Shown one piece after another: positions 18,022 to 61,487 of a stretch of DNA of 64,000 nucleotides. The notes under the pieces were generated by a model. The model worked only from the letters and a program-made list of their open reading frames with translations. It searched no databases and was not told where the DNA came from. Source of the stretch: Myxococcus stipitatus DSM 14675 (GTDB taxonomy: Bacteria > Myxococcota > Myxococcia > Myxococcales > Myxococcaceae). Positions within the stretch are counted from its first letter, which is position 1. Each line of letters opens with the position of its first letter. The DNA is taken from assembly GCF_000331735.1 (NCBI RefSeq), contig NC_020126.1, forward strand, positions 1,860,001 through 1,924,000. The letters run 5' to 3'. The position numbers and the translations under genes are program-made.

Positions 18022-20841
18022 TCAGCTCCCCAGCGGAGGCTCCGCTGGGGGGCGTGAAATCCACGCGGCGATGAAGACATCCAGCTCGCCGCGCAGCACG
18101 TCCTTGACGCGAGGTGTCCCGGCGCCGGTGCGAGGGTCTTCCACACGAGGGCTGCGACCCACGTAGTAGCGCCGTGCCTCGTCCGTGGTCCCTCCCTGGC
18201 CTGCGACCACACGCGCGGCGATGTCCTTGAGCTCGTCCAGCTCTCCCGCGCCGGTGAGGGTGAGCACGCGGCCGGTGGACTCGTCCTTCACCGTCACCTC
18301 CGTGCGCACTCGCTGGAGGTAGGCGCCCTCGTGGCTCTTCACGGGACGGCCGAGCACCTCCAGCAGCTCCAGCTCGTCCTCGGCGAGCGCGCCGCCTCGG
18401 TGCACCCGCACGTAGGCCCGCTGGCGCTTCTCGTCCTCCAGACGCCGGTGCAGCCCCGCCTCGCCCGCGAGGAAGCCATACGCCCCCGGTCCGGCGATGC
18501 GCACCACCACGCGCGAGGGCTCATCCGCCTCCGCCACCGCCACCGCCTCGTAGCCGCGCCGCTGCGCCCAGCCCAGGTACATGGAGGCCAGCTCCTGCAC
18601 CCACGCCTCCTGCGTCTCCGCCGAGTCGCTCGCGCAGATATCCACCAGCGCCTCGTTGTCCTGCTGCGTGGCTCCGGACGCTTGCAGCGCCTCGGCCATC
18701 TGGACCTCGCGAGCGACGTCCTCCACCTGCCGCGCCGCGGAGGCGAGCTGCACCTCGTTCTTCGCCTCGCGCACCAGCCGGCGCGCGAAGAGGCACGCGG
18801 CCTCCAGGCGCTCCAGCTCGTTGATGTGAGCCTCCACCGTCCGGAAGGCCCGGATGACGTCGGCCGCGTGGGTGGGGTCGTCCCAGAGGTTGGGCGCTTG
18901 TGTCTCCGTCAGCAGGGACGCCCGCCGCTCCTCCAGCTCCGGCCGGCCCGACGAGGCCGCCAGCGCGCGCGCCTTGCCCACCAGCCGGTCCATCTCCACC
19001 AGCAGCGACTTGCGGTCCAGCCGCCGCTTCACCGGAGCGGCACGCGCCGACGGGAGGAGCAGCTGCGCGGTGGGCGCGGGCGGCGGCGAGGCGGGCTCGG
19101 CGACGGCCATGACCCGGCCTCCCGGGCGCGCCTCCACGCGCACGGGCGTCCCAGGGGCCAGCGGCTTGCGAGCAATCTCCACGGCGAGCGCGGCGGTGAG
19201 CGTCTTCTCGATTTCGCGCTGGAGGTAGCGCGCGCCGAACTGGGGCGAGTAGCCCCGCTCCACCAGGATGTCGACGACCTCGGGGGTGACTTCCACGTCC
19301 AGCGAGCGCGCGCGGATGCCCTCGCGCTCCAGGACCCGGCCCACCTCGCGCTGCGCGATTTTTCGGATGTCCACCTTGGACAGGGGCTGGAAGTGACAGA
19401 TGGCGTCGAAGCGGTTGAGGAACTCCGGGCGGAAGGACTCGCCGATGCGGCGGTCCACCTCCGACACCATCTCATCCGCGCGCTTCGTGCCCGCGAAGCC
19501 CATGGCGGGCTCGCGGTACACCTCGGCGCCCACGTTGGACGTGGCGACGATGAGCGTGTTGTTGCACGACACCACCTCGCCCGCGCCGTTGACGAAGGTG
19601 CCCTCGTCGAAGAGCTGGAGGAAGCGGTCATGCACGCTGCGCGCGGCCTTCTCGAACTCGTCGAGCAGCAGCACGGAGAACACCTTGCCGTCCAGGAGCG
19701 CGCTCAGCTCGCCACGCCGGGTCTCCAGCGCCGGAGCCCAGGACGCGCCGAAGGGCACGCTCTCGTCTCCGTCGTTGGGGTAGTCCGCCATGTTCAGGCG
19801 CACCAACCGGTCCGCCGAGCCGAAGAGGTACTCCGCCAGGAGCTTCGCGAGCTGCGTCTTGCCCACGCCCGTGGGGCCCGCGAACAGGAACACGCCCAGC
19901 GGTCGCCGAGGGTCGTTCAGCCCCGCCTTGAGCAGCGCCACCGAGCGCAGCACGGCCCCCACCGCGTCCGTCTGGCCCAAGAGCCGCTCGCCGAAGAAGC
20001 GCTCGGTCTCCTCCAGGTCCAGCGGCATGGCGTCGTCCACCACGAAGCGCGGCAGGCGCGTGGCGGCACAGAAGCGGGTGAGCACGTCCTCGGGGCCGAC
20101 GTGGTCCTTGGCCGCGCCCGCCGCTTCGGCCGCGGTCTCCTTCAGCAGCTCGATGGCCTTGCGCGGCATGCGCTGGGCCAGCAGGAACTTGGCGGACAGT
20201 CGCAGGGCCAGGTCACACGCCGCGGGGTCGATGGGCAACCGCAGCTCGCGCTCCAGCTCCTCGGCCACGCGGCCCACGACCCAGCGCGCCTTCTCGAGCG
20301 GCGGCTCGTGCAGGGGCAGGAGGTGCAGCCGCTCCGCCAGGGCCTCATCGGAGCGCACCAGCTCCTGGACGCGCTTGGGCTCCGTCTCGAAGATGAAGCG
20401 CATGCCGCCGGTGCGCAGGGCGCGCACGGCCACGGGCGCCAGCGGGCCACCCAGGGCCGCGGGCAGGTCTCGGATGTAGACGATGGGGCAGGCGTGCCGC
20501 GCGAGGTGCGCGAGCAGCTCCTCGAAGCTCTCCGCGGCCTGACGCTGGGTGCTGCGCGCCAGGATGTTGGCGACGGAGACCTCCACCAGTCGTGCCTGGG
20601 AGAGCTCCGCGTCCACGCGGCCCTCGGCGATGCGGCGTGCGACCTCTTGCACGAGCGCGCTCTTGCCCACGCCCGGGTCGCCCGCCAGCAGCGGGTGCTT
20701 GCCGCCTCGAGTCAGCAGACCGAGCACCTCCGTCACCGCGGCATCCACGCCGTGGGCGGCCGGCAACCGCCCTTCGCGGGCCATCGCGGTCAGGTCTCGG
20801 TCGATGAGTCTTTCCTGGTCCTCGCTCTTCCTCGTCGCCAT
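18022..20841 (-). CDS. AAA+ Clp-type ATPase fused to GGQ-less RF2-like domain
   Basis: A 939-residue fusion. Residues 1-600 are Hsp100/ClpA-like: first AAA+ with Walker A GDPGVGKS (54-61) but a degenerate Walker B (IVYIRDLP, no DE); second AAA+ with GPTGVGKT (322-329), Walker B LLLDEFEK, sensor 1 NNTLIVATSN and sensor 2 FGARYLQREIE. There is no ClpA N-domain and no ClpB middle domain. Residues about 630-930 match class-I release factor RF2: NLWDDP, SMYLGWAQRRGYE, YGFLAGEAGLHRR and the C-terminal end EDPRTGAGTPRVKDVLRGELDVFI. The SPF codon-recognition loop and the GGQ catalytic motif are both missing (SHEGAY lies where GGQ belongs). A ribosome-linked unfoldase or rescue role is inference. Confidence 0.85.
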   Translation of the reverse strand: MATRKSEDQERLIDRDLTAMAREGRLPAAHGVDAAVTEVLGLLTRGGKHPLLAGDPGVGKSALVQEVARRIAEGRVDAELSQARLVEVSVANILARSTQRQAAESFEELLAHLARHACPIVYIRDLPAALGGPLAPVAVRALRTGGMRFIFETEPKRVQELVRSDEALAERLHLLPLHEPPLEKARWVVGRVAEELERELRLPIDPAACDLALRLSAKFLLAQRMPRKAIELLKETAAEAAGAAKDHVGPEDVLTRFCAATRLPRFVVDDAMPLDLEETERFFGERLLGQTDAVGAVLRSVALLKAGLNDPRRPLGVFLFAGPTGVGKTQLAKLLAEYLFGSADRLVRLNMADYPNDGDESVPFGASWAPALETRRGELSALLDGKVFSVLLLDEFEKAARSVHDRFLQLFDEGTFVNGAGEVVSCNNTLIVATSNVGAEVYREPAMGFAGTKRADEMVSEVDRRIGESFRPEFLNRFDAICHFQPLSKVDIRKIAQREVGRVLEREGIRARSLDVEVTPEVVDILVERGYSPQFGARYLQREIEKTLTAALAVEIARKPLAPGTPVRVEARPGGRVMAVAEPASPPPAPTAQLLLPSARAAPVKRRLDRKSLLVEMDRLVGKARALAASSGRPELEERRASLLTETQAPNLWDDPTHAADVIRAFRTVEAHINELERLEAACLFARRLVREAKNEVQLASAARQVEDVAREVQMAEALQASGATQQDNEALVDICASDSAETQEAWVQELASMYLGWAQRRGYEAVAVAEADEPSRVVVRIAGPGAYGFLAGEAGLHRRLEDEKRQRAYVRVHRGGALAEDELELLEVLGRPVKSHEGAYLQRVRTEVTVKDESTGRVLTLTGAGELDELKDIAARVVAGQGGTTDEARRYYVGRSPRVEDPRTGAGTPRVKDVLRGELDVFIAAWISRPPAEPPLGS
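18028..18050. terminator. Strong hairpin between convergent genes
   Basis: A perfect 10-bp stem (CCCCAGCGGA/TCCGCTGGGG, loop GGC) overlaps the last codons of the AAA+/RF gene and lies 59 bp after the CARDB stop. It probably terminates both. Confidence 0.55.
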
Positions 20842-22069: not shown

Positions 22070-22612
22070 TCACGTCTGCAGCTCCCCATGCCAATAGGTC
22101 ACGTCCCGGAGGAACTTGGCCCACGACATGGGCATGCCCTTCTCGAAGATGAACGACAGGTGCAGCACGTCGGGCAGCTTCTTGGGCTTCACCGGCGCGC
22201 AGCGCAGCGCCATCTTGGCGTGCTCGGGCGTGCGGTTGCCCTTCTTCTGGTTGCAGGGCACGCAGGCGATGACGACGTTCTCCCACGACGTCTTGCCACC
22301 CTGGGCGCGAGGGATGACGTGGTCGTACGTCGCCTCGGCGCGAGAGACCTTCAGGCCGCAGTACTGGCAGCGGCAGTGGTCACGCATGTAGACGTTCTCG
22401 CGGCTGAACTTCACGCCCTTGGGGCCCTTGCGCTGCCCGCGGAAGAAGCGGATGACGGAGGGCATGCGAATCTCGACCGTCACCGAGCGCACGAAGCGGT
22501 CCTCGTACTCCTCGACCACCTCGACCTTGCCTTGGAAGATGAGCATCACCGCGCGCTGCCAGGAAATCCGCGCGACGGGCTCGTAGGACTGACTGAGGAC
22601 CAGCGTCTCCAT
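22070..22612 (-). CDS. HNH endonuclease inside the tRNA array
   Basis: A 180-residue protein with the HNH pattern: CQYCGL, DHVIPRAQGG, ENVVIACVPCNQKKGN, with two CxxC pairs binding a structural zinc. The N-terminal region (METLVLSQSYEPVARISWQRAV) is typical of the widespread single-domain bacterial HNH family (COG1403). It starts 20 bp after the 3' end of a tRNA and is followed by two tRNA-Ser genes on the same strand, so it is probably co-transcribed with tRNAs. GAAAGG is the likely ribosome-binding site. Confidence 0.85.
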   Translation of the reverse strand: METLVLSQSYEPVARISWQRAVMLIFQGKVEVVEEYEDRFVRSVTVEIRMPSVIRFFRGQRKGPKGVKFSRENVYMRDHCRCQYCGLKVSRAEATYDHVIPRAQGGKTSWENVVIACVPCNQKKGNRTPEHAKMALRCAPVKPKKLPDVLHLSFIFEKGMPMSWAKFLRDVTYWHGELQT

Positions 22613-23617: not shown

Positions 23618-23876
23618 ATGACGTGTGACATGAAAGCTCTCCAAGAGAAACACTGCGCGAACTCGTTCTCGGCGTCTCTCTAAAGAGTGCGACGAGAAAC
23701 ATGAAAAACATCCTGGGGTTAGATGAAGTCAGGAAATTTCGGGGCCCGATTGGTGGGCCGCGAACCTCTGTAGACAGGCTTTGCTCGTGCTCCTTCTGAG
23801 TAAGGTCTTGCCGGTCTCATTGTGCGATGGCTCGTGATGCGATGTGGCGGCGAGCACCAAGCTACGTGCTTGAGTA

Positions 23877-23962
23877 TGGGGACGCTGGGAGTTGAACCCA
23901 GCGGGCCCTGTCGGGCTCGGGCTCTACAGGCCCGCGCGTCTTCCCTAACGCTCTACGTCCCC
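23877..23962 (-). tRNA. tRNA-Tyr(GTA), copy A
   Basis: Acceptor GGGGACG/CGTCCCC, anticodon stem CGGGC/GCCCG, loop CTGTAGA (GTA), long variable arm (GCCC/GGGC) as expected for bacterial class-II tRNA-Tyr, T arm CTGGG-TTCAACT-CCCAG, discriminator A. Separated by 259 bp from tRNA-Cys; downstream of the 52-codon ORF. Confidence 0.93.
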
Positions 23963-23988
23963 TGAGGGAGCAGGAGCCCTGAAAGCCG

Positions 23989-24023
23989 AGAGGCCAAGTC
24001 CCCTGGATGGGAGCCCGGCCTCT
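23989..24023 (-). other. Conserved hairpin between small ORF and tRNA-Tyr
   Basis: Stem AGAGGCC/GGCCTCT with inner TCCC/GGGA pairs, 26 bp upstream of the mature tRNA-Tyr. It is also present in copies B (about 35966-36000) and C (about 60626-60659), with changes in C that keep or lengthen the stem. It may be a processing site, attenuator or terminator. Confidence 0.5.
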
Positions 24024-24058
24024 GCGTGGCTTGGCGCGCCGGTGAAGGAGCGCGAGCT

Positions 24059-24217
24059 TCAGCAGGGGACGGGCGGAGGGCCGCCACGCCGGTCAAAGCC
24101 CGCGGGGGACTTAGAGGCGAAGCTCACAAGGGAGCAGGAGGCGGCGTCGAGCTGGGTCCAGAGGCTGTTGCGATAGCTGCGCTTCATCGGGTTCGTCTGC
24201 ACCGTCAACGTCGTCAT
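24059..24217 (-). CDS. Conserved 52-residue ORF upstream of tRNA-Tyr, copy A
   Basis: ORF starting MTTLTVQTNPMKRSYRNS and ending PPPVPC, preceded by AAAGGAGC 8 nt before the ATG. Two other copies (36036-36194, 60696-60854) keep the same start, length, Shine-Dalgarno sequence and most residues, which supports coding. No known domain; N-terminal half basic and polar, C-terminal end Pro-rich with a terminal Cys. It lies just upstream of tRNA-Tyr on the same strand and may share its transcript. Confidence 0.55.
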   Translation of the reverse strand: MTTLTVQTNPMKRSYRNSLWTQLDAASCSLVSFASKSPAGFDRRGGPPPVPC

Positions 24218-24269
24218 GGTTGCCGCTCCTTTCTCCGGGGACCTACGGTTATTGAACTTCGTCCCTGAC

Positions 24270-24443
24270 AAACGTGGATATTCAATGGCCTGACAAGGAG
24301 CCTGTGAAGGTGGTCTGTTCGGGGGTGGTGTGGGTTTTTGGAGCTTGCCGAGTCAAGCAAGATCTCTCTTACACGTTGCGAGGGTGCGAGCCGCGTACTG
24401 CTGCCGGGCAACGGGGCCGTTCCTACGAATATGCTCCGCCTCG
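24270..24443. other. Island left boundary and promoter region
   Basis: Sequence after the repeat A end (CGTCCCTGAC) becomes AT-richer and leads to the NTPase gene. It probably carries divergent promoters for the small ORF and the NTPase; none could be pinned. Confidence 0.3.
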
Positions 24444-27400
24444 ATGACTAAGAAGGCCCATCGACTTACTCCACTCCAGTCCGTACAGATCCAGCTGGCC
24501 TATCTGTCTGGCAATCAGTGTGCGTTTCCTGGATGCACCAACCTGATGATGGATCTGGCTGGAAACTTCATAGGCCAAGTCTGTCATATCGAAGCAGCTG
24601 AGTATGGGGGCGAGCGCCACAACGATAAGATGTCGAATGAGGACCGTCGCTCATTCGAGAACCTAATGGTGATGTGCTACGAGCACCACCGTATTACGAA
24701 CGATGTCGAGCAGTACCCGGCTGCGCGGCTGCGTCGAATCAAAGAGGACCACGAGCGACGTTTCGCTGGCCCTGAGCGCGAGGATTTGGAGAGGCGTTTT
24801 GCTCTCGCTGCTCAATCTTTCAACGAAGATAACTACCTGCAGAGGCATTGTCTTCCGCCACCTGCTTGCGTGGAACTCACCGCACAACCCACCACGATTC
24901 CGCCCAACGTGGACTCTCGACCACTCGTTGAGCCAATCCGATCTGGCAGCGACGACTCCGGGGCAAAGAACGAGAGTCACGCAGTGTCGCTGACGCAGAT
25001 GCTGATGACTGTCGCCATTGGCAAAACCATACTCGTCGTTGGAGATGGCGGTAGCGGGAAAAGCACGACACTGAAAATGGCACTTGCTGCAGCAGCAGAG
25101 AGGCGTCGGAATGATCGTTCGGCCCCCCTCCCCATCCTGCTTGCGCTTTCCCGATTTCGTGGCGATCTGAATGCGCTGATAAACGAGAGCCTCGGGATCG
25201 CCCAGGGGGACTGGAGAACGCTGCCTGGAACCTTTCTGGTGTTCTGTGATGGTCTGAACGAGTTGCCGCTCGATGAGATGGCTTCCTTTGGGGACGCACT
25301 TGAAACGCCCCAGAGGAGGGACCGAGTTGCTCTCGTCGTTAGTGTTCGTGGGGGAGGGGTGAGGGGTCGTACCCAGCTTCCTAGTATCGACAGGGTACTT
25401 AGGTTGTCTCCCCTCAATAAGGCCCAGATGATCAAGATGGCGCAGCAAGCTCTCGGCATGGAAGATGCCCTCGGCCTTCTGGACCATCTCCGCGACCGTA
25501 TGCCATCACGGCGACTCAACTTTGCCCGTTTGCCATTTGGCTTCGTGGCAATGCTAGATGAATTCCGAGATAAGAAGGTGCTCCCTGTAACTGATGCTGC
25601 CGTGATGGAGGCATTTCTTAGGAAGCGACTTCTTCGTGCGCGTGAAGCACCCAAGGAGCTCGCATTCATTGGCGACCTTGCAGACGAGTTGCTCGTAGGT
25701 CTTGCTGTCGGGATTGCCCTCGAGCTTCGGCTGAACAAGCACCTGTCCTCGATGCGACGTCCCGACGTGCAGTCGGTCTTGACCAGCGTCTTGCGCAAAG
25801 CGCAGCAGGACGGCCTGTTTGGCGCCGATGCTATTACCAGTGTTCAGGCATTTGCATGGATGCGCCATGCTGAGTTGTTGATCCTCTCGGCTGATGACTG
25901 GGTGTCCTTTCGCCACGACCTCATAGCAGATTATTTCGCTGCTTTGGCGCTGGCGAAGGACTGGGAGAGGTATGTTGGTGTGCTCAGGCGAACGTACGTC
26001 ACTGACGACGCGTGGCTTTTGCGAGTGAGCAGATCCGAGCTGAACGCATGGCGTCGCTCAAGCGTGTTTGCGGCGAGCTGTCCTGGCTGCGCAGTGTCTC
26101 TTTGTCTTGGCGAGGCGTCTCAAGGTTTGGTCATCGATGCTGCGCGAGATGCTGCTGAGCGTGGAAATGAGCTCGCCATGCTTGAGGCCATTTCGGTCAT
26201 GCGTACGATTGGCAATGAGGATAGCCTCGACTGGCTCCGTGAATGTGCCGTTGGAATCGACCGCAAGCAACTAATGGATAGTCGAGTAGGGTTTAATCTA
26301 CTGCGAGCACTTGCCTACCTGGGCGATGAGTCTGTGCTTGGTTGGCTCCTTGAGGATAGCTCGCATGGCGCCCTGCAGATTTGGCAATATGCGAACCCAG
26401 AACGCGCCCTGGCCCTTTCGCGGGAGTATCTTGCGAGAAATGGAGAATGCGAGTTTGCGCGCATGAATCTATGCCTGGACACGCTCGTGCAGTATGGGGA
26501 CAGTCGGGATGTGCTTCTCCTGTCGAAGATCATCCAGGGCTTGCCAAATCCCTACCTGGTTGTTCACGCGTTCCGGGCTCTTTTTGGCATAGAGCCGACG
26601 CTTGCTCTAGGGTGTCTTAGGCCGCGGTACATGGAGAGTCCTGACGACTTGGGCATATATCTTAGGGCGATTGCTGAGACCGGAACTCCGCTCGATTCCA
26701 GGATGCTCATTCAGTTTGTTTTCTTCGGATTTCACGATGTGAAGCCCGGCAAGAAAACGGATGCCGAGTATCACATCGATATCAAAACGCGCGAGCCGGC
26801 AGCAAAGTTCCTCGAGTTGTGCCAAATCGATAGTGCGGATGTGGATTTGCTTCTTGCTGGATATGAGTTGCATCCGAGGAGTCGGCACTTCGTCTGGTCT
26901 ATTGCGCAAGCGCATCAGTTGGCTGCGTTCGATAGGCTTGCTATTCAAGCCGTACTATCAGGCGGAGCGGCCGAACTCGGCTCAGTCGTAGAGTTCGCAC
27001 GAGTGCGTAGCTGGGGTCCGGCGATTCGCAACGAGTTTGATAGAGGGCTGCTCCATCGAGTCGAAACGGATTCGACTCTGATGAGGATGACGTTCAGTTG
27101 CTACAGGGTGCTTCGTTACTTGGCGGAGCATGGAAATGGAGCCCTTGCGGCCTCAGTGGTAACGGACCGGGTGGCGCAACTTGGGGCCGCGTACGAGAAA
27201 ATTAGTGTCAATGAATCTGTGTCGCTGCCATGGGGGGATCCTGAGTCGGACTTCCATCTGAAGATAGTGTCTGATGTTTCTGTTGAGTGGGAGTTTGCTG
27301 CGTTGCTGCCAATCGCGTCGGCGGTGGCTGACTTGTTGCCGGAGGACACGATTCGGATTTGGTTGAGGGTCGATACATCGCGGTTTAGTGGGGGCGAACA

Positions 27401-27848
27401 GCAGCTTCAGTCGATCTATGGTCGGCTGAGGGGGGATGAACTTGATGAGAAGCTTTGTTCGTTCGAGAATGAAGTGTCCGCCGCTCACTTCTTGTTGGTT
27501 CTCGTAGAGTTGGGTATTACGCGTCGCCGCGTCGATGCATTCTCAAGGCTGCTTGTTTTTGGAATGTGGGACTTGAGAGTGTGCTTTGCTCTTCTGAAGG
27601 TGCTGCCAATTCTGTGGCGCAACGATGCCGATGAGGTTGCTCGAATTGTGGTTGATGTGGTTGCGAGATCGCCGATCAGTCAATTTCAGCTTCATGCGGA
27701 GTTTGTCGATGAAGTGCTTGGGAGAATGACAAGGAGGATAGCAGAGCGCGTTGTGGGGCCTGCGCTGGTTGCTGCCCGCGACCCGCTGTCGAGGGAGATT
27801 CTTCAGTTGTGGTACGACAAGGGAATGCGACTCCGCAGCGTGGATTAG
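24444..27848 (+). CDS. HNH-NACHT/STAND NTPase, probable phage-defence protein
   Basis: A 1,134-residue protein. Residues 20-90 hold an HNH nuclease: CAFPGC (26-31), CHIEAAE (His48), ENLMVMCYEHH (Asn73, His81/82). Residues 195-275 begin a NACHT-type NTPase: Walker A GDGGSGKST (200-208), Walker B FLVFCDGLNEL (264-274). The rest is helical and repeat-like (HEAT/ARM-like sensor by analogy). The layout nuclease-NTPase-repeat sensor fits bacterial NLR-like (Avs/bNACHT) defence proteins; target unknown. Base composition is less GC-rich than flanks, supporting transfer. The start is chosen at MTKKAHRLTPLQ. Confidence 0.82.
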   Translation: MTKKAHRLTPLQSVQIQLAYLSGNQCAFPGCTNLMMDLAGNFIGQVCHIEAAEYGGERHNDKMSNEDRRSFENLMVMCYEHHRITNDVEQYPAARLRRIKEDHERRFAGPEREDLERRFALAAQSFNEDNYLQRHCLPPPACVELTAQPTTIPPNVDSRPLVEPIRSGSDDSGAKNESHAVSLTQMLMTVAIGKTILVVGDGGSGKSTTLKMALAAAAERRRNDRSAPLPILLALSRFRGDLNALINESLGIAQGDWRTLPGTFLVFCDGLNELPLDEMASFGDALETPQRRDRVALVVSVRGGGVRGRTQLPSIDRVLRLSPLNKAQMIKMAQQALGMEDALGLLDHLRDRMPSRRLNFARLPFGFVAMLDEFRDKKVLPVTDAAVMEAFLRKRLLRAREAPKELAFIGDLADELLVGLAVGIALELRLNKHLSSMRRPDVQSVLTSVLRKAQQDGLFGADAITSVQAFAWMRHAELLILSADDWVSFRHDLIADYFAALALAKDWERYVGVLRRTYVTDDAWLLRVSRSELNAWRRSSVFAASCPGCAVSLCLGEASQGLVIDAARDAAERGNELAMLEAISVMRTIGNEDSLDWLRECAVGIDRKQLMDSRVGFNLLRALAYLGDESVLGWLLEDSSHGALQIWQYANPERALALSREYLARNGECEFARMNLCLDTLVQYGDSRDVLLLSKIIQGLPNPYLVVHAFRALFGIEPTLALGCLRPRYMESPDDLGIYLRAIAETGTPLDSRMLIQFVFFGFHDVKPGKKTDAEYHIDIKTREPAAKFLELCQIDSADVDLLLAGYELHPRSRHFVWSIAQAHQLAAFDRLAIQAVLSGGAAELGSVVEFARVRSWGPAIRNEFDRGLLHRVETDSTLMRMTFSCYRVLRYLAEHGNGALAASVVTDRVAQLGAAYEKISVNESVSLPWGDPESDFHLKIVSDVSVEWEFAALLPIASAVADLLPEDTIRIWLRVDTSRFSGGEQQLQSIYGRLRGDELDEKLCSFENEVSAAHFLLVLVELGITRRRVDAFSRLLVFGMWDLRVCFALLKVLPILWRNDADEVARIVVDVVARSPISQFQLHAEFVDEVLGRMTRRIAERVVGPALVAARDPLSREILQLWYDKGMRLRSVD

Positions 27849-27979
27849 GGTGGCGAAGAATGTGCTTGAGTCCTGGGCATCTGACACCGAACCGGTGGCG
27901 AGGCGGTTGGATGAGCGCGGGCCCGAGCGGGCGCTTCATTAGTCGAGTCGGATGTGTGAGATGGGTTTGTTGGATTTGG
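27849..27979. other. Spacer before IS66 element
   Basis: 131 bp between the NTPase stop and the left tip of the IS66 composite. Nothing recognised. Confidence 0.3.
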
Positions 27980-28084
27980 GTAACCGTCCGGGTTTGGCTG
28001 TCGTGAGGACAAACGAGCCCCACCCCGGACCAGGGTCAGTGGACGGGTAACGCTCGTGGAAGGCCAACCGGTCCGCAGCGTGCG

Positions 28085-29487
28085 TCAGGAGGTGTTCGCG
28101 GCGAGGCGACGACTCCAGGGGCCTGGTAGGAGCTCATCCAGGCGGCTTGCCGGGTGGTACTGCACGCGAAGCAAGACGTCGGAGAGGTACTCACGCGGAT
28201 TGACGCCGTTCGCCGAGCAGGTAGCCACGAGCGAGTAGAGCCCCGCGAGGTTGCGGCCCGCGCGGTCATGCCCGACAAACAGAAAGTTCTTCCGCCCGAG
28301 AGCCGCGACGCGCAGGGCTCGCTCCGAGGCGTTGTTGTCCAAGGGGAGCCGCACGTCCTCGACAAAGCGGGTGAGCGCGTCCCATTGGCCGAGCGCATAC
28401 GAGATGGCCGTGCCCAGCGGGCCGCGAGGTGGGTGTAGAGGCTTGTTCCCCTCGAGCCAGGAGCGGATTGCGGCCAACGCCTGGGAAGACTGCTCCTTGC
28501 GCATGGCCAGATGGGCGGCCGTCCCAGCCAGTCCCGCCTCTTTCACGGCGGCCTCCACCCGGTAGAGCTGGAGGATGAGCTTCAGCATCTCTTGCGCGGC
28601 AGGATGAGGGCGCGCCTCGAAGAAGCGGCGGCGCACGTGGGCCCAGCACCCGACGCGCGTGCGGCCTTCTGGCGTCGTCACCCGGTTGTAGCCGGTGTAG
28701 GCATCCACGACGAGAGAGCCACGACTGCTCCCGAGGACCTCCATGGGGGTGGTGCCAGCACGGGTGGGGCTGAAGCAGTAGGCGATGAGCGAGTCGTGCG
28801 AGGCCTCCTCCTCGGAGAGGAACGTCCACAGGTAGCCCGTCCTTGCCTTCTGCGGGGCCAGCACCTTCAAGGGCGTTTCGTCCGCCTGCACCACCTGCTG
28901 CGCGGCCACCTGCTTGAGCAGACAGTCGGAGACTGGAGCGAGCTCCGCGGCGGCGCGGTGGAAGAGGTCCGTCATGGTGCTGCGAGCCACCGGGAGGCCC
29001 TCTCGCGCCAGTGCCTTCTCCAGCCGATGCAGGGGCAGGGAGTCAGCGCACTTCGAGGTGACGAGGTGGGCGATGAAGCCGGAGCCGTAGCCCGTCTTCT
29101 CGGCGACGCGGGGTGGCCCCAGGGCCGTCACGACACTCTCGCCGCACGCGCAGACGAGGGTTTCCCGCACGTGCACCTGCTTCTCGAAGCGGCCTGGGAT
29201 GTACTCATACAGGACGCTCGGCCGACCCGGCCCCAGCGGATGGAAGTCCGTCCCGTTGCAGCGAGGGCAGCGCTGGTGCTCGCGAGGGACTGGGTGGAAG
29301 ACAGTGCGCGAAGGCAGTTGCTTCTTCACGCCGGCGCGCTCGCGGCGCTTCATGAGTGCTGCCTCCGCCTGCTCCTTCTTGTCGCGAGGGGTCTCCCTGC
29401 GTAGCTCCTCCTCGGGTGGAGGCAGCTTCTCCGACTTCTTGCCGAAGACGGTGCGGGTGAGAGTCGCGACCTGCTGCTCGAGCGCGG
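28085..29487 (-). pseudogene. tnpC: IS66 TnpC transposase, inverted copy lacking its N-terminus
   Basis: Nearly the same protein as 30140-31624 from QQVATLTRTVFGKKSEK to the C-terminal RRLAANTS. The first about 30 residues of the normal protein are missing; upstream frame is read from antisense tnpA sequence. Catalytic-domain features (VQADETPLKV, VVDAYTGYN, DNNASERALR) are intact, so activity could survive if a start codon is available. Confidence 0.8.
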
Positions 29488-29744
29488 CGAAGGCCGTCTC
29501 GGTGAGCACGCTGCAGTTCTGGTTGTACAAGCTGAGGCGAGAGGCCAGGCGAGCGAGCGCCCCTCCCGTGCTGCTGCCGGTAGAGGTAGTAGACTCCGCC
29601 GCGCCTTCAGCGCGGCGGGGAGGTCCCCCTGCAGGCGGCGCACCCGGCTTGCTGGAAGCCGCGCTCCCCTCTGGCGTCGTGGTGCGCTTCCCGGCGGGGA
29701 CAGACGTGGCGTACCTGCGAGCAGTCCTGGCGGGGCTGGGTTGA
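29488..29744 (+). pseudogene. tnpA: IS66 TnpA (OrfA), 3' part
   Basis: Encodes VSVSTLQFWLYKLRRE, then LPSGVVVRFPAGTDVAYL near the end, typical of the C-terminal region of IS66 TnpA. The N-terminal HTH part is lost at the junction with the inverted copy. Confidence 0.75.
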
Positions 29745-29745
29745 C

Positions 29746-30135
29746 GTGCTCCTGCTGCCGCGCGCAGTCCGCATCCATCTGGCGACTGAGCCGGTGGACA
29801 TGCGCAAGTCCATCGACGGTCTCTTCGTCCATGTGCAACGCGTCCTGGTAGCTGACGCGTACTCCGGCCACCTCTTCGTCTTCGTCAGCAAACGGCGAGA
29901 CAAGGTGAAGGTGCTGGCGTGGGACGGCGGAGGATTCCTGCTTCTGTACAAGCGGCTGGAGGCGGGCCGCTTTCGGATGCCTGACGTCGCGGACGACGCC
30001 ACATCGGTGCAACTGGACTCCACCCAGCTGGCCATGTTGCTCGACGGTATCGACGTCTCGCGCGTACGTCGGCCCGCCCGCTGGCAGCCACCCGGGCAGC
30101 CAGCCGAGGCCCAGGGCACCTCGGCTCGGCGGTGA
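29746..30135 (+). CDS. tnpB: IS66 TnpB (Orf2)
   Basis: A 129-residue protein with the family block VDMRKSIDGLFVHVQ, LFVFVSKRRDKVKVL and DGGGFLLLYKRLEAGRF. GTG start 2 bp after the tnpA stop. It is an accessory protein of IS66 elements. The 3' end is a few bases before tnpC. Confidence 0.9.
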   Translation: MLLLPRAVRIHLATEPVDMRKSIDGLFVHVQRVLVADAYSGHLFVFVSKRRDKVKVLAWDGGGFLLLYKRLEAGRFRMPDVADDATSVQLDSTQLAMLLDGIDVSRVRRPARWQPPGQPAEAQGTSARR

Positions 30136-30139
30136 GTAA

Positions 30140-31624
30140 TTGGGTGGCATGGCTCGTGAGCTGCCAATGGACCACCACTGCCCCTGGCGAGAGGAGGCCG
30201 AAGAGCTTCGTGAGCGGCTGACCGCGCTCGAGCAGCAGGTCGCGACTCTCACCCGCACCGTCTTCGGCAAGAAGTCGGAGAAGCTGCCTCCACCCGAGGA
30301 GGAGCTACGCAGGGAGACCCCTCGCGACAAGAAGGAGCAGGCGGAGGCAGCACTCATGAAGCGCCGCGAGCGCGCCGGCGTGAAGAAGCAACTGCCTTCG
30401 CGCACTGTCTTCCACCCAGTCCCTCGCGAGCACCAGCGCTGCCCTCGCTGCAACGGGACGGACTTCCATCCGCTGGGGCCGGGTCGGCCGAGCGTCCTGT
30501 ATGAGTACATCCCAGGCCGCTTCGAGAAGCAGGTGCACGTGCGGGAAACCCTCGTCTGCGCGTGCGGCGAGAGTGTCGTGACGGCCCTGGGGCCACCCCG
30601 CGTCGCCGAGAAGACGGGCTACGGCTCCGGCTTCATCGCCCACCTCGTCACCTCGAAGTGCGCTGACTCCCTGCCCCTGCATCGGCTGGAGAAGGCACTG
30701 GCGCGAGAGGGCCTCCCGGTGGCTCGCAGCACCATGACGGACCTCTTCCACCGCGCCGCCGCGGAGCTCGCTCCAGTCTCCGACTGTCTGCTCAAGCAGG
30801 TGGCCGCGCAGCAGGTGGTGCAGGCGGACGAAACGCCCTTGAAGGTGCTGGCCCCGCAGAAGGCAAGGACGGGCTACCTGTGGACGTTCCTCTCCGAGGA
30901 GGAGGCCTCGCACGACTCGCTCATCGCCTACTGCTTCAGCCCCACCCGTGCTGGCACCACCCCCATGGAGGTCCTCGGGAGCAGTCGTGGCTCTCTCGTC
31001 GTGGATGCCTACACCGGCTACAACCGGGTGACGACGCCAGAAGGCCGCACGCGCGTCGGGTGCTGGGCCCACGTGCGCCGCCGCTTCTTCGAGGCGCGCC
31101 CTCATCCTGCCGCGCAAGAGATGCTGAAGCTCATCCTCCAGCTCTACCGGGTGGAGGCCGCCGTGAAAGAGGCGGGACTGGCTGGGACGGCCGCCCATCT
31201 GGCCATGCGCAAGGAGCAGTCTTCCCAGGCGTTGGCCGCAATCCGCTCCTGGCTCGAGGGGAACAAGCCTCTACACCCACCTCGCGGCCCGCTGGGCACG
31301 GCCATCTCGTATGCGCTCGGCCAATGGGACGCGCTCACCCGCTTTGTCGAGGACGTGCGGCTCCCCTTGGACAACAACGCCTCGGAGCGAGCCCTGCGCG
31401 TCGCGGCTCTCGGGCGGAAGAACTTTCTGTTTGTCGGGCATGACCGCGCGGGCCGCAACCTCGCGGGGCTCTACTCGCTCGTGGCTACCTGCTCGGCGAA
31501 CGGCGTCAATCCGCGTGAGTACCTCTCCGACGTCTTGCTTCGCGTGCAGTACCACCCGGCAAGCCGCCTGGATGAGCTCCTACCAGGCCCCTGGAGTCGT
31601 CGCCTCGCCGCGAACACCTCCTGA
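30140..31624 (+). CDS. tnpC: IS66 TnpC transposase, complete copy
   Basis: A 494-residue DDE transposase with leucine-rich N-terminal coiled coil (EELRERLTALEQQVATL), zinc-finger-like Cys (RCPRCNG, CACGE), and catalytic region ADETPLKV ... VVDAYTGYN ... NNASERALR. Confidence 0.92.
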   Translation: MGGMARELPMDHHCPWREEAEELRERLTALEQQVATLTRTVFGKKSEKLPPPEEELRRETPRDKKEQAEAALMKRRERAGVKKQLPSRTVFHPVPREHQRCPRCNGTDFHPLGPGRPSVLYEYIPGRFEKQVHVRETLVCACGESVVTALGPPRVAEKTGYGSGFIAHLVTSKCADSLPLHRLEKALAREGLPVARSTMTDLFHRAAAELAPVSDCLLKQVAAQQVVQADETPLKVLAPQKARTGYLWTFLSEEEASHDSLIAYCFSPTRAGTTPMEVLGSSRGSLVVDAYTGYNRVTTPEGRTRVGCWAHVRRRFFEARPHPAAQEMLKLILQLYRVEAAVKEAGLAGTAAHLAMRKEQSSQALAAIRSWLEGNKPLHPPRGPLGTAISYALGQWDALTRFVEDVRLPLDNNASERALRVAALGRKNFLFVGHDRAGRNLAGLYSLVATCSANGVNPREYLSDVLLRVQYHPASRLDELLPGPWSRRLAANTS

Positions 31625-31729
31625 CGCACGCTGCGGACCTGCTGCCCCTCCACGAGCGTTATCCGTCCACTGACCCTGGTCCGGGGCGGGGCTCGTTTGT
31701 CCTCACGACAGCCAAACCCGGACGGCTAC

Positions 31730-31993
31730 TTTCCTTCGCAAGTGGGCGCGACGGTTGAGGGGTGCATTCGTCCAGCCCTGGGCTGGGTCAACGAACAGTA
31801 CAGCGGAAAGACGAAGTAGGAACCCACTGGAGGCCAGCCCCGAAACCGACTTCGTCCGGGTGGCGAAGGACGGAGCGGGCTGATGGGGCAGGTACCTCTT
31901 GGGGTAGCAGTCAGGATACTTGCCGCATTCCAGGGGCGGAGGCCTTCGTGGCAAAGGCGAAAGCAATCCAATTTCGCCTCGGACCGGATAGGA
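31730..31993. other. Intergenic, nothing recognised
   Basis: 264 bp between the IS66 right tip and the next gene's stop; no gene or clear structure. Confidence 0.3.
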
Positions 31994-33182
31994 TCAAATC
32001 TTCAGCCCCGGATATGCGGATGCAAGCGCTGCTCGATGTTCGCTTGTCATGCCAGCCGCCTCAATCCCTTCAAGCCAGGCGAGTAGTTCGCCCCAGTTGT
32101 TGAGGTTGAATGTTTTCACGCTGTGTCGCGATTCCAACGCCACAGTTGGCCTGGTGACGAGCTCAGCCATGGGCTGATCCATGACAAACGCATCGACGTA
32201 GGGTGCATAGGTCGCGATGTGCTTTAGATCAAAGAAGAAGCCGCGCAGGCGCTTCAACGCCTTCTCGCGCTTCTTGTAGGCGCCCTCATTGACCATCATC
32301 TTCAATGTTGCAAGCATGTGTGCGTTGACCCACTGATACGGTGTCTCCTTGAAGTGGTCGGAGAGAAGAAACTCAAGGCACTTGCTGAGACGCTGGTCTG
32401 CAGGAATCTCCGGCGGAATGACTTGGAGCATGGATTGGACGATCTTTGAGATTATGGGTGCGTCAAGAATGGCCGCATAGTCGCGACGGGCAATGCGCTC
32501 CCGATACTGAAGATAGAAGTCCATGTATGACCGTCCCATGGCCACATACTCGGCCTTCAGGTCATCCTCGAAGGAGGTTTTTGATTCTCGCCATTTGCCA
32601 AGCAGGTCAACCAAGCCTTCAGCCGACTCGCGCTTGAGATCGCGGACGAGGTCGATATTCCCGAAGTACTTTCCGACATCAATGCGCAGGTAGCCGCCCC
32701 ATCCATGAATGTCGTCGCTCAGCGCATCGCTTGGTTCTAACCGATACGGCGCGGGTTCCCCTGCCAGCCATGCTTGGAAAGCCTTGAGTAATTGTGTGTG
32801 CTCAACTTCGTATGCGGGCTCAAACTCTTCCCCCCTGGCTGTGGCCTTGATGAATTTGAGCAGTTCATCGCGCTTTTCCCATTGATTCGTCTCGTCCTCG
32901 TGAATGGATGAGTACGGAACAACAAGTAGCTGCAGGGAGGTTAGCTTGCGATACGGTCGGCCGCTCCAGGAAACGGTCATCGCCGGAGCGGAATGCACTC
33001 GAAAAGAAGAATTGGTCTAGATAAAGCACCTGCTTCTTGATTGCGGGCAGGGGCACACGTTCACGATGTCGGCAGCGTTTGCAGCCACGGTAGATGTGGG
33101 TCTTGTGCACGCTCACGTTGCCGAAACTGTCTTTTGTGCCGCACCCAGCGCAGTCCCCAAGCACATACGTCACAATCGCCAT
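31994..33182 (-). pseudogene. Zinc-ribbon/PIN-like protein split by a frameshift
   Basis: The N-terminal frame (start 33182, MAIVTYVLGDCAGCGTKD) has CAGC ... GCKRC, a zinc-ribbon, then VLYLDQFFFSSAFRSGDDRF. The frame changes at about 32958-32963 (CGGCCG) and continues as RKLTSLQLLVVPYSSIHEDE to the stop at 31994. Joined, about 395 residues. The YLDQ...SSIHEDE layout resembles a PIN-like nuclease core; that is inference. A +1 shift (one extra base) is needed. Decay or programmed frameshifting cannot be told apart here. Confidence 0.65.
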
Positions 33183-33569
33183 CTCAACTCTCCGGTGCCG
33201 AATAGGGCACTGTTGACATAAAGACCTGACCACTAGAGGGTTACTGCTTACCCGTACCTAGTCATTCTCCTCGTAGCCTCAGCGATTCTCTGAGGGAACG
33301 TCCCTCGACGAATAACCGAAAGAGCATAAGAAAAATGGGAGGCCGGTTGAAGGCGATGGCTGGGGTGGAGGGGCCGAGGAGGGCCACGGACGAGAGTTGC
33401 CCGAACTGTGAACTGTGGGCCGGGCCCATATCCGGAGCTGAGCCCCCCGTAGGGCACACTGCTGCCCAGGGGCCACCCTCCCATCAGGGCGCGGCAAAGC
33501 CTGCGCTGGGCCTGTGGGTTGTCTTGAGCGCCTCAACACCGCACGGCCTGGGGAGTCCTCGCGCCGGGG
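33183..33569. other. Intergenic, nothing firmly recognised
   Basis: 387 bp upstream of the zinc-ribbon gene, ending at the left MITE-like element. A plus-strand ORF here has no recognisable domain or ribosome-binding site. Confidence 0.3.
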
Positions 33570-33656
33570 CTAGTCCTCTGACGTGGAGGAGACTAACGCG
33601 AGACCCCGGCGAGGTTCGGCTATGACCCACCAAGCTTCTCTCGGTCAGCGGACTAG
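33570..33656. repeat. MITE-like palindromic element, left copy
   Basis: 87 bp with terminal inverted repeats (CTAGTCCTCTGAC ... GTCAGCGGACTAG). The reverse complement occurs at 34882-34969 with few differences. The pair bracket the ParA gene. Confidence 0.8.
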
Positions 33657-33724
33657 GAGGCCGAATCCGAATGTGCTCACGAACGCGATTTGACGGTCGC
33701 GATTCAAAGTCGGCGCGGAACGTC

Positions 33725-34750: not shown

Positions 34751-34861
34751 TGTGCACTCCTTGCCAACCGCTAAACGTAGGCGATTATCGCGGCGGAGTG
34801 GTGAAGTTTCCGCAATCCTCCACTGACGACGCTGACGCCCCTCGCTTGAGGGTGAGGGTCT

Positions 34862-34878
34862 CGGCTCAAGCTGAGCCG
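34862..34878. other. Short perfect hairpin upstream of parA
   Basis: CGGCTCA-AGC-TGAGCCG, 7-bp stem, between the parA start and the right MITE-like copy. Possibly an operator or terminator. Confidence 0.35.
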
Positions 34879-34881
34879 TAA

Positions 34882-34969
34882 CTAGTCCTCTGACCGAGAG
34901 AAGCTTGGTGGGTCATAGCCGAACCTCGCCCGGGGTCTCGCGTTAATCTCCTCCCGGTCAAAGGGCTAG
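34882..34969. repeat. MITE-like palindromic element, right copy (inverted)
   Basis: 88 bp; reverse complement of 33570-33656. Ends CTAGTCC ... GGGCTAG are themselves inverted repeats, as in a MITE or REP-type element. Confidence 0.8.
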
Positions 34970-35338: not shown

Positions 35339-35370
35339 GTTAACCGGTGCCCCAACGGTTAACAGCACCT

Positions 35371-35620
35371 GTTAACCGCTCTCGGTTGTTCTCTCCCCAA
35401 ATTGGACGAGAGAGAGCCCCAGAAAGTCCAAGCCGCGGCCGAATGGATGGGCAATCGCGTTCTGCGTGGCAGAGCGCAGAGAGTGTCCTCTGAATCGTCG
35501 CAGAGCAAAATCCCTTGTAATTCAGGGGCTTAAGCTCGCGTGTCTGGTTCAATCCATCACGCGACTCGTGTTAACCGAAACGGCTCTGCCAGTTTGCAGG
35601 CGCTTTCAATCAGCTCCCCA
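35371..35620. repeat. GTTAAC-rich conserved segment, copy B
   Basis: 250 bp collinear with 59745-59994 (begins GTTAACCGCTCTCGG in both, ends TCAATCAGCTC). The shared order is GTTAAC, CTCTCCCC, CTTAAGC, a hairpin (CGCGTG/CACGCG here) and CGTGTTAAC. Two further GTTAAC sites lie just upstream (35339, 35358). The segment before the tRNA genes in block C looks like this; here it joins copy B of the tRNA-Tyr module instead. Confidence 0.75.
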
Positions 35621-35853
35621 AGAGAAAGTCTGCGCGAACTCGTTCTCGGCGTCTCTCTAGAGAGAGCGACGGGAAACATGAGAAACATCCTGGGGTTAGA
35701 TGAAGTCAGGAAACTTCGGGGTCCGATTGGTGGGCCGCGAACCTCTGTAGACAGGCTTTGCTCCTGCTCCTTCTGAGTCAGGTCTTGCTGGTCTCATTGT
35801 GCGATGGCTCGTGATGCGATGTGGTGGCGAGCACCAAGCTACGTGCTTGAGTA

Positions 35854-35939
35854 TGGGGACGCTGGGAGTTGAACCCAGCGGGCCCTGTCGGGCTCGGGCT
35901 CTACAGGCCCGCGCGTCTTCCCTAACGCTCTACGTCCCC
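35854..35939 (-). tRNA. tRNA-Tyr(GTA), copy B
   Basis: Same sequence as copy A: loop CTGTAGA, class-II variable arm, perfect acceptor GGGGACG/CGTCCCC. No other tRNA lies next to it. Confidence 0.93.
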
Positions 35940-36035
35940 TGAGGGAGCAGAAGCCCTGAAAGCCGAGAGGCCAGGTCCCCTGGATGGGAGCCCGGCCTCT
36001 GCGTGGCTTGGCTCGCCGGTGAAGGAGCGCGAGCT

Positions 36036-36194
36036 TTAGCAGGGTACGGGCGGAGGGCCGCCAAGCCGGTCAAAGCCCGCGGGGGACTTCGAGGCGAAGC
36101 TCACAAGGGAGCAGGAGGCGGCGTCGAGCTGGGTCCAGAGGCTGTTGCGATAGCTGCGCTTCATCGGGTTCGTCTGCACCGTCAACGTCGTCAT
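36036..36194 (-). CDS. Conserved 52-residue ORF upstream of tRNA-Tyr, copy B
   Basis: Differs from copy A at one residue by reading (Leu for Arg in GFDRLGGPPP) and ends in TAA instead of TGA. Same AAAGGAGC ribosome-binding site. See copy A for properties. Confidence 0.55.
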   Translation of the reverse strand: MTTLTVQTNPMKRSYRNSLWTQLDAASCSLVSFASKSPAGFDRLGGPPPVPC

Positions 36195-36374
36195 GGTTGC
36201 CGCTCCTTTCTGCGAAGAGCTACGAAGATTGAGGTTCGTCCCTGACGCGATTTTCTTTCAAGGGCCTCGCCACGCTCTATCTGCTCGTATGAGGTGCCCC
36301 TTGCGCCTGAGGAGTTCTCGTCCTGCTCATTCGCCTTGGATTAGGCCTTCAGTCGAATGGTCGAATAGGGGGGC

Positions 36375-60470: not shown

Positions 60471-60515
60471 GTGAGGTGTGTGAGGCGGAGCGGAGTGGAC
60501 CCCGCTCGTGCTGCA

Positions 60516-60601
60516 TGGGGACGCTGGGAGTTGAACCCAGCGGGCCCTGTCGGGCTCGGGCTCTACAGGCCCGTGCGTCTTCCCTAACGCGCTACGTCCC
60601 C
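60516..60601 (-). tRNA. tRNA-Tyr(GTA), copy C
   Basis: Nearly identical to copies A and B; loop CTGTAGA and class-II variable arm kept, a few substitutions in the D region (CGCGTTAG). Here the other five tRNA genes follow downstream on the same strand. Confidence 0.93.
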
Positions 60602-60695
60602 GGAGGAGAGGGGCCCAGAAAGCCGAAAGGCCGGGTCCCTTGGATGGGAGCCCGGCCTCTGCGTGGCTTGGCGCACCGATGTCGGAGCGCGAGCG

Positions 60696-60854
60696 TCAGC
60701 AGGGTACGGGCGGATGACCGCCAATCCGGTCAAATCCCACGATGCAGTTCGAGCCAAAGCTCATGAGGGAGCTGGAGGCGGCGTCGAGCTGGGTCCAGAG
60801 ATAATTGCGATAGCTACGCTTCATCGGGTTCGTCTGCGCCGTCAACGTCGTCAT
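60696..60854 (-). CDS. Conserved 52-residue ORF upstream of tRNA-Tyr, copy C
   Basis: MTTLTAQTNPMKRSYRNYLW..., about 80% identical to copy A by eye, with changes spread over the ORF, no frameshift, same AAAGGAGC site and same length. That pattern supports coding. See copy A. Confidence 0.55.
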   Translation of the reverse strand: MTTLTAQTNPMKRSYRNYLWTQLDAASSSLMSFGSNCIVGFDRIGGHPPVPC

Positions 60855-60906
60855 GGTCGCCGCTCCTTTCCCTGGAGACCTACGGTGGTTGAATTTCGTC
60901 CCTGAC

Positions 60907-61487
60907 ATGGACATGACGCGATTTTTGCGAGCTTGCTCCTATGGCCCGCATTCCAGTGGTGGGCGACAGCCCCTTCTGTGAGGGAAGTCGGTGCCTCGGC
61001 CGAAGCACCTTGCTCGTCTTGACGCGCTGCCCATGGTTGCCTTGATGTATGGAGACGCCCTTCAAAAAGCGCGGGTCTTGGAGACGCGCGGGATTGGAGG
61101 GCTGCGCAGCGGCGCTCGAGGTGCCGAAAACCAGCGGCCGGGGAGCCTTGGGCCACGCTGGGCCGCAGAAGTGGACGAGAGGAGCAAGCTGGAGGAAATC
61201 AAGGTCGCCTGGCGAATAGCTCTTGAAGGTCGCATCCATCCGCCATCGTAGACAATCTCGTGCATGAGAGATGGCTTGTCCGCCGCACCAGCAAGCCTCG
61301 TCCCTCCGACCAGGACCAAGAACTCGACGCAGCCCGGTCCAACTCCCCCTGCACTGACGGCCGGCAAGCGTCGCGCTCACGTGACCGCTCCGTCGGCCGT
61401 CCCGTTTCCAGCTCCGGGCGGGGCCGTGGCTTTCACTGATGCCTCCTGGATAATATAGGGAACCACGTAAAACAGGAGAGTTCCCCG
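60907..61487. other. Non-coding/decayed stretch right of module C
   Basis: 581 bp. It contains the degenerate repeat 61060-61200 shared with 43705-43856. A minus-strand ORF over 60880-61380 has no recognised domain. Confidence 0.4.
61060..61200. repeat. Degenerate repeat shared with 43705-43856
   Basis: See 43705-43856; shared blocks in the same order, about 140 bp. Confidence 0.7.

What the first reader, a model, noticed from the sequence alone, without database searches (positions are those of the whole stretch)
24444..27848. HNH-NACHT NTPase as a probable phage-defence gene
N-terminal nuclease, central NACHT with intact Walker A and DGLNEL Walker B, and a long repeat-like C-terminus match NLR-like bacterial immunity proteins. 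The gene is AT-richer than its neighbours and lies between tRNA repeats.
Basis: partly seen in the sequence, partly recalled or inferred. Interest (0 to 1): 0.6.

Follow-up and report, generated by a model that had tools for sequence, protein, structure and literature searches.

The report
HNH nuclease–NACHT immune-type gene
A large accessory bacterial gene joins a DNA-cutting HNH domain to a NACHT switch and a long helical region, the build of bacterial relatives of animal and plant immune receptors, and it sits in a mobile-DNA hotspot inside a tRNA gene cluster; its phage-defence role is likely but untested.

Summary
Window 24444-27848(+) is one intact 1134-aa gene, 55.5% GC in a 64.8% GC window, 174 bp from a duplicated tRNA-Tyr unit. 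Residues 14-108 are an HNH domain matching defence nuclease effectors (PADLOC up to 1.7e-23), with six motif residues invariant in 13 of 13 aligned HNH stretches. Residues 180-533 are a NACHT module with winged helix (hhalign 99.1%, E 1.7e-18 against ten NACHTs of its genus; C-terminal control 1.2%). The rest is predicted all-helical. This is the effector-switch-sensor layout of bacterial NLR-related (bNACHT-type) proteins.

The only relative found over switch and sensor is in Methylophaga (plasmid and MAG), where an Mrr-type nuclease replaces the HNH and a SLATT gene follows. None of 194 other genomes searched in its phylum showed the full protein, so it is accessory, not housekeeping. The site is a tRNA array that mobile DNA splits repeatedly in this genus; at the matching junction one relative carries an HNH-plus-short-Argonaute pair, but 20 of 27 leader-side ORFs scanned match no defence model.

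New variant of a known kind. DNA cutting, trigger and defence are inferred, not shown.

The parts
24444..27848 (+). HNH-NACHT-helical protein, 1134 aa, whole gene with stop
24483..24767 (+). HNH nuclease domain, residues 14-108; C26, C31, H48, N73, C78, H82 invariant in the alignment
24981..26042 (+). NACHT switch with helical and winged-helix part, residues 180-533
25041..25067 (+). Walker A GDGGSGKST, residues 200-208
25236..25265 (+). Walker B LVFCDGLNEL, residues 265-274 (D269, E273)
26031..27845 (+). C-terminal region, predicted all-helical (presumed sensor), residues 530-1134
23635..24269 (-). left copy of the 635-bp direct repeat with tRNA-Tyr (23877-23962) and its leader
35612..36246 (-). 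right copy of the 635-bp direct repeat with tRNA-Tyr (35854-35939)
60515..60907 (-). third leader plus tRNA-Tyr copy (88%) heading Ile-Lys-Gly-Gln-Asn
27980..29487 (-). IS66 copy (transposase ORF 28085-29530) 131 bp behind the gene
30222..31729 (+). inverted IS66 copy, 99.5% identical

Best explanation
The gene encodes a single-protein, NLR-like immune receptor. In the resting state the NACHT module holds nucleotide and keeps the protein inactive. The C-terminal helical region senses an intruder product, or a host protein disturbed by it. Binding lets the NACHT module exchange nucleotide and oligomerise, which brings the N-terminal HNH domains together; these cut DNA, of the phage, the host or both, and stop the infection. 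Shown here: the HNH and NACHT domains, their conserved motif residues, the accessory distribution and the mobile context. Inferred from the family: nucleotide switching, oligomerisation, DNA cutting, sensing by the C-terminus, defence.
For: HNH matches defence nuclease models within residues 6-108 and solved HNH proteins; six motif positions are invariant in 13 of 13 aligned HNH stretches. NACHT plus winged helix by profile-profile comparison, control negative; residues 169-521 match, 25% at E 9.6e-5, a genus relative whose NACHT scores 60.9 bits. A relative with the same switch and sensor carries a different nuclease (Mrr_cat) at its N-terminus and is followed by a SLATT gene, so the effector looks like a swappable unit. 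None of 194 other phylum genomes showed it full length; lowest GC of 303 windows; third codon positions 60% GC against 93% and 94% in two core-like genes. At the matching site G121 holds an HNH protein followed by a short pAgo gene, the latter ending 101 bp from the leader. The layout with a nuclease effector is established for bNACHT25/32, where the nuclease is needed for defence (passages of PMC12169576).
Against: No direct functional evidence. PADLOC and NCBIfam have no model that covers the whole protein, and Pfam lists no HNH family for it. NACHT is below Pfam's curated cut-off, and PDB profile hits to NLRC4 vanish when two myxobacterial relatives are left out of the profile. One of the ten NACHTs in the positive comparison (L015) is the relative that also matches directly. 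Structure models are poor (pLDDT 43.7 and 61.9). Of 27 ORFs hand-picked beside tRNA-Tyr leaders in 16 loci, 7 match any PADLOC model and only one locus is a clear known defence system. The closest HNH relatives are stand-alone proteins of unknown role, so the HNH alone does not prove defence.
Confidence: 0.78

Rival explanations
1. A STAND-type conflict or self/non-self protein of a social bacterium: it senses a signal of rival kin or a delivered toxin rather than a phage and kills or halts the cell by DNA cleavage.
For: The host is inferred to be a myxobacterium. All 27 genus genomes searched have a NACHT match at E<=0.001, 26 over the cut-off; but so do 11 of 14 control genomes, 3 over the cut-off. 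Published analyses tie STAND NTPases to conflict systems enriched in multicellular bacteria (passages of PMC7159879 and PMC8195603).
Against: The nearest relative is in Methylophaga, on a plasmid and in a MAG, not a social genus (recalled). No secretion or kin-exchange gene was recognised among the neighbouring ORFs scanned, which were a selection.
Confidence: 0.12
2. A selfish or stabilising cargo of a mobile element (an addiction or anti-competitor gene of the island) whose activity serves the element against other elements.
For: Duplicated tRNA-Tyr leaders and IS66 copies flank it. One stand-alone HNH relative (L004) lies beside a gene that also occurs in the prophage-like stretch of L057 (by eye).
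Against: No antitoxin, integrase or transfer gene was recognised among the six other ORFs of 24270-35611 that I scanned (five, one; transposases and a ParA-like ATPase were found; small ORFs were not scanned). The tripartite layout is typical of infection sensors.
Confidence: 0.08
3. A degenerate passenger: a once functional gene, now silent and drifting.
For: An IS66 copy sits 131 bp behind it; no clear ribosome-binding site by eye upstream of the ATG.
Against: Full-length frame, HNH and NACHT motifs intact, C-terminus colinear with the Methylophaga protein to near its end.
Confidence: 0.06

Closest known systems
Bacterial NLR-related bNACHT proteins, in particular clade 6 bNACHT25/32 (PD-(D/E)XK nuclease-NACHT-NCH1)
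   Same: N-terminal nuclease, central NACHT, C-terminal helical region in one protein (passages of PMC12169576)
   Different: HNH instead of PD-(D/E)XK; the C-terminal region was not tested against NCH1 or SNaCT, and no sequence comparison with bNACHT25/32 was made
Methylophaga Mrr-NACHT protein WP_330109631.1 (plasmid NZ_CP143310.1) and its MAG copy
   Same: 26% identity over residues 185-689 and a second colinear segment 882-1131
   Different: Mrr-type nuclease at the N-terminus; followed by a SLATT gene
HNH-SAVED effectors of CBASS (Cap5-like; label recalled) and SduA with N-terminal HNH
   Same: Related HNH domain
   Different: No match to the SAVED or DUF4263 part; NACHT switch instead
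HNH-associated short Argonaute pair (SPARHA-like; label recalled), seen at the matching site in G121
   Same: Related HNH domain and the same kind of genomic site
   Different: Argonaute partner gene instead of a fused NACHT and helical region
Stand-alone HNH proteins in G075, G098, G120, a Rhizobiales genome and an Enterobacter plasmid
   Same: HNH 56-58% identical
   Different: ORFs of 283-424 aa with another C-terminal part; tblastn matched the HNH part only
Conflict proteins with exchangeable N-terminal domains, HNH and REase among them (TRADD-N and EAD10-type systems)
   Same: HNH and restriction-type nucleases exchange at the N-terminus (passages of PMC8195603)
   Different: Other central and C-terminal domains in the passages seen

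Membership tests
Bacterial NLR-related (bNACHT-type) proteins | Central NACHT module with Walker A, Walker B, sensor arginine and winged-helix histidine | tested here: met
   hhalign 99.1%, E 1.7e-18 over 316 columns, control 1.2%. G203, G205, K206, D269, E273 and R302 are invariant in a five-row alignment (H491 is not, as L061 lacks it); all of these and H491 align with invariant columns of the ten-row NACHT set. Pfam score below cut-off
Bacterial NLR-related (bNACHT-type) proteins | N-terminal effector domain | tested here: met
   HNH, residues 14-108
Bacterial NLR-related (bNACHT-type) proteins | C-terminal sensor region | tested here: inconclusive
   Predicted all-helical at low to medium confidence; ligand unknown; Z up to 12.1, within the range the tool gives for helical models
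Bacterial NLR-related (bNACHT-type) proteins | Protects against phage | not testable with these tools
   needs an experiment
Bacterial NLR-related (bNACHT-type) proteins | Placement in a described clade (NCH1, SNaCT and others) | not tested
   the defining paper (PMC10294775) is not held
CBASS HNH-SAVED effector | SAVED domain behind the HNH | tested here: not met
   SAVED_HNH profile PDLC01997 matched only at positions 8-107 of 368
Shedu (SduA) | DUF4263 nuclease domain | tested here: not met
   SduA profile matched only at positions 14-114 of 326
HNH-associated short Argonaute systems | Adjacent short pAgo gene | tested here: not met
   the neighbours are a tRNA-Tyr leader on one side and an IS66 transposase on the other
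AVAST (Avs) | Avs-type STAND and sensor, recognition of phage proteins | tested here: inconclusive
   no Avs model among the 16 PADLOC families listed up to E 1; no direct comparison with Avs was made

The most novel reading that the evidence does not exclude
The gene founds an undescribed NACHT receptor lineage whose sensor is shared between distant bacteria while the nuclease is exchanged (HNH here, Mrr in Methylophaga with a SLATT partner). It rides on islands that break into a conserved tRNA operon and keep the severed half expressed by adding their own copy of the operon leader and tRNA-Tyr gene, so immunity cargo can enter an essential tRNA operon at no cost.
Probability: 0.2. Interest if true: 0.6.

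Novelty: new variant of a known kind. Interest (0 to 1): 0.42.

Why it matters
It would add an HNH effector and a rare helical sensor to the bacterial NLR-like receptors, and it shows the same switch and sensor paired with different nucleases, which makes effector exchange testable by domain swap. Its location points to a tRNA operon in this genus that is split again and again by mobile DNA, a place to look for further accessory and immunity genes.

Tried and rejected
Structure prediction of the full protein with a two-row alignment: pLDDT 43.7, not used for fold search. C-terminal half alone: pLDDT 61.9; Foldseek had no match at E<=0.001, and VIA-align gave importin/HEAT-like solenoids at Z up to 12.1, which the tool's own note calls possible for any helical repeat; I read only 'helical solenoid likely'.

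NLRC4 matches of the five-row NACHT profile were dropped as evidence because they disappear without the two relatives L015 and L061.

Relatives in viral contigs: none confirmed in three scans; phage records: no match at E 1e-5; genome contigs: first scan none, second four loci, of which one is a Methylophaga switch-and-sensor relative and three match in the HNH only. These contig scans need short exact patterns and can miss relatives.

'Defence island' as the explanation of the site was rejected as too strong: cargo beside leaders in other genomes includes a transposase, RCC1 repeats, NlpC/P60, a cytochrome c and a peptidase. The ORFs scanned there were hand-picked by length and position from the list, not a random sample; some lie beside unsplit arrays (L053); no control set was scanned. 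PADLOC limits were 1e-5 and 1e-3.

A codon-usage gene finder trained on typical genes missed this AT-rich gene and was not used.

Literature: searches for HNH with NACHT or NLR, bNACHT, HNH with short Argonautes, tRNA array with Myxococcus (0 papers) and Myxococcus, tRNA, hotspot, defense (212 papers, 12 listed) showed no paper on an HNH-NACHT protein or on this tRNA site among the titles and abstract starts listed. Most lists were cut short and the key bNACHT paper is not held, so I do not claim that either is unpublished. Of PMC12169576, PMC13092281, PMC7159879, PMC8195603 and PMC10952713 I saw passages only.

Full report
The window is G000:C1:1860001-1924000 of a one-contig genome of 10.35 Mb. 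'Phylum', 'family' and 'genus' below are the kin groups that the genome search uses.

The gene. The frame is open from a GTG at 24330; the ATG at 24444 gives 1134 residues and is the likely start, because the closest HNH relatives begin at the same point. A run of 1134 stop-free codons has a chance of 9e-21 at the local composition, and the other five frames carry 14, 28, 36, 46 and 60 stops. The gene has 55.5% GC against 64.8% for the window; none of 303 gene-sized windows is lower. Its third codon positions are 60% GC, against 93% and 94% in two neighbouring core-like genes. It is the only match in its own genome.

HNH effector. PADLOC nuclease models match within residues 6-108: PDC-M68A 1.7e-23, 'Effector, Endonuclease' 9.1e-19, SduA 1.2e-17, SAVED_HNH 4.3e-16; two weak matches elsewhere are to the P-loop. 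Pfam lists no HNH family for it at E<=1. The best solved structure is an HNH endonuclease, 9om4, E 1.9e-9, followed by three SAVED-domain proteins. In an alignment of 13 HNH stretches C26, C31, H48, N73, C78 and H82 are invariant; by general knowledge of HNH nucleases (recalled) H48, N73 and H82 would be the catalytic set and the cysteines metal ligands. The closest stretches, 56-58% identical, belong to ORFs of 283-424 aa in three genomes of its family (G120, G075, G098), a Rhizobiales genome and an Enterobacter plasmid; a Burkholderia plasmid follows at 52%. A more distant one (47%, Zunongwangia MAG) is a 624-aa protein next to what looks by eye like an SNF2-type helicase.

NACHT switch. Pfam's NACHT model covers profile positions 2-158 but scores 19 bits against a cut-off of 26.7, so I tested it further. 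A profile of residues 180-533 with the two Methylophaga relatives aligns to a profile of ten top-scoring NACHT modules of the genus with 99.1% probability, E 1.7e-18, over 316 columns; the C-terminal region of the same proteins gives 1.2%. One of the ten, L015, also matches the protein directly (25%, residues 169-521, E 9.6e-5). Walker A, Walker B (D269, E273), R302 and the winged-helix H491 align with invariant columns of that set; in a five-row alignment H491 is not invariant because L061 lacks it. NLRC4 appears in a PDB search only when two further relatives are in the profile, so I do not count it.

C-terminal region. Residues 530-1134 are all-helical in a 61.9 pLDDT model, most confident around residues 560-720. 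Fold comparison gives solenoids of the importin/HEAT kind at scores that are ordinary for helical repeats. By analogy with NLRs this is the sensor; nothing here shows what it senses.

Relatives. In 195 genomes of the phylum (own included) 15 have any match; outside its own genome no reported match covers more than 353 residues, and most are HNH alone (the best three candidates per genome were scored). Searching with residues 180-1134 gives 2 of 193, own included. Plasmid records: 94 with matches, none covering 80%; among the 20 listed best first, only Methylophaga thalassica NZ_CP143310.1 reaches beyond the HNH into switch and sensor, with 26% identity over 185-689 and a second colinear stretch 882-1131. 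Its N-terminus is Mrr_cat (4.8e-7), its NACHT 2.2e-5, and a SLATT gene follows after 32 bp. A second copy is in a Methylophaga MAG. There is no match in 50,697 phage records and none confirmed in three viral-contig scans. The gene is therefore accessory and rare, and its nuclease looks exchangeable. Exchange of HNH and restriction-type nucleases at the N-terminus of other bacterial conflict proteins is already published (passages of PMC8195603).

Context. The gene begins 174 bp from a repeat unit made of tRNA-Tyr and about 307 bp of its leader. Copies: 23877-24269 and 35854-36246, both inside 635-bp repeats 95% identical, and 60516-60907, 88%. Nine relatives (L050, L051, L053, L058, L073-L077) have one long array, for example in L058 Tyr-Ile-His-Lys-Gly-Gln-Asn-Cys-Phe-Trp-Thr-Ala-Arg-Arg-Met-Val-Leu-Leu-Ser-Ser (in L074 no Tyr was called), and each of these genomes has a single leader match of at least 180 bits. 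Here the array is broken between Asn and Cys by 36 kb, and the severed Cys-to-Ser part is headed by an extra leader and tRNA-Tyr. In 12 of 27 genus genomes, own included, the leader occurs at least twice at 180 bits or more; 14 have one such match and one has none (my count). Four other genomes (G114, G121, G124, G130) also have a leader with tRNA-Tyr heading the Cys part. In G121 this junction carries an HNH protein that also matches pAgo-associated models, followed by a short pAgo (468 bits) that ends 101 bp from the leader, and further off a 1126-aa protein with AAA_22 and LmuA-like matches. Overall the cargo is mixed: of 27 ORFs picked by hand beside leaders in 16 loci, 7 match any PADLOC model (5 of 10, 1 of 10, 1 of 7), and others are transposase, RCC1, NlpC/P60, cytochrome and peptidase genes. 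I read the site as a general integration hotspot that sometimes holds defence genes. How the leader is duplicated is not known; no element with its own tyrosine or serine integrase was recognised in the window ORFs scanned, only transposases.

Mechanism. The layout matches bNACHT25/32, where a nuclease-NACHT-helical protein degrades DNA after phage sensing and needs its nuclease for defence (passages of PMC12169576). By analogy: the C-terminus senses, NACHT switches and oligomerises, HNH cuts DNA. The domains are shown; sensing, switching, oligomerisation, cutting and defence are inferred.

Verdict. It is a new variant of a known kind: HNH effector, rare sensor lineage, unusual site. Interest is moderate because nuclease-NACHT proteins are already established as antiphage proteins.

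Noticed in passing
23635-24269, 35612-36246, 60515-60907; relatives L041-L077: A conserved tRNA array is split repeatedly in this genus; a duplicated tRNA-Tyr plus leader, holding a conserved small ORF, heads severed parts. 12 of 27 genomes have two or more leader copies at 180 bits or more.
   Followed up: partly
18022-20841 (-): One ORF joins a ClpB-like AAA unit (AAA_2, ClpB_D2-small) to a release-factor PCRF domain at 637-799 (E 2.5e-15), an odd fusion.
   Followed up: partly
38762-43402 (-): A 1546-aa ORF combines FHA, sigma-54 activator AAA, Fis-type HTH, Ser/Thr kinase and TPR, two signalling outputs in one protein.
   Followed up: no
55417-56145 (+) and 56152-56775 (+): AT-rich dCTP deaminase (TIGR02274, 124 bits) followed by an unknown 207-aa ORF between the second and third tRNA-Tyr copies; dCTP deaminases can be antiphage (recalled).
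   Followed up: no
22070-22612 (-): Another HNH gene (PF14279, PF01844) lies inside the tRNA array between tRNA-Leu and tRNA-Ser, with core-like codon usage.
   Followed up: no
L057 12456-13679: A tyrosine integrase sits directly beside a tRNA-Leu of the array in G121, followed by ORFs that look by eye like phage DNA polymerase and methylase.
   Followed up: partly
33570-33656 and 34882-34969: Inverted repeats of 87-88 bp, 92% identical, around a ParA-like gene at 33725-34750.
   Followed up: no
L042 6886-9987 and 10100-12445: Two caspase-domain proteins, one with WD40 repeats, about 3 to 9 kb from a leader copy in G120.
   Followed up: no
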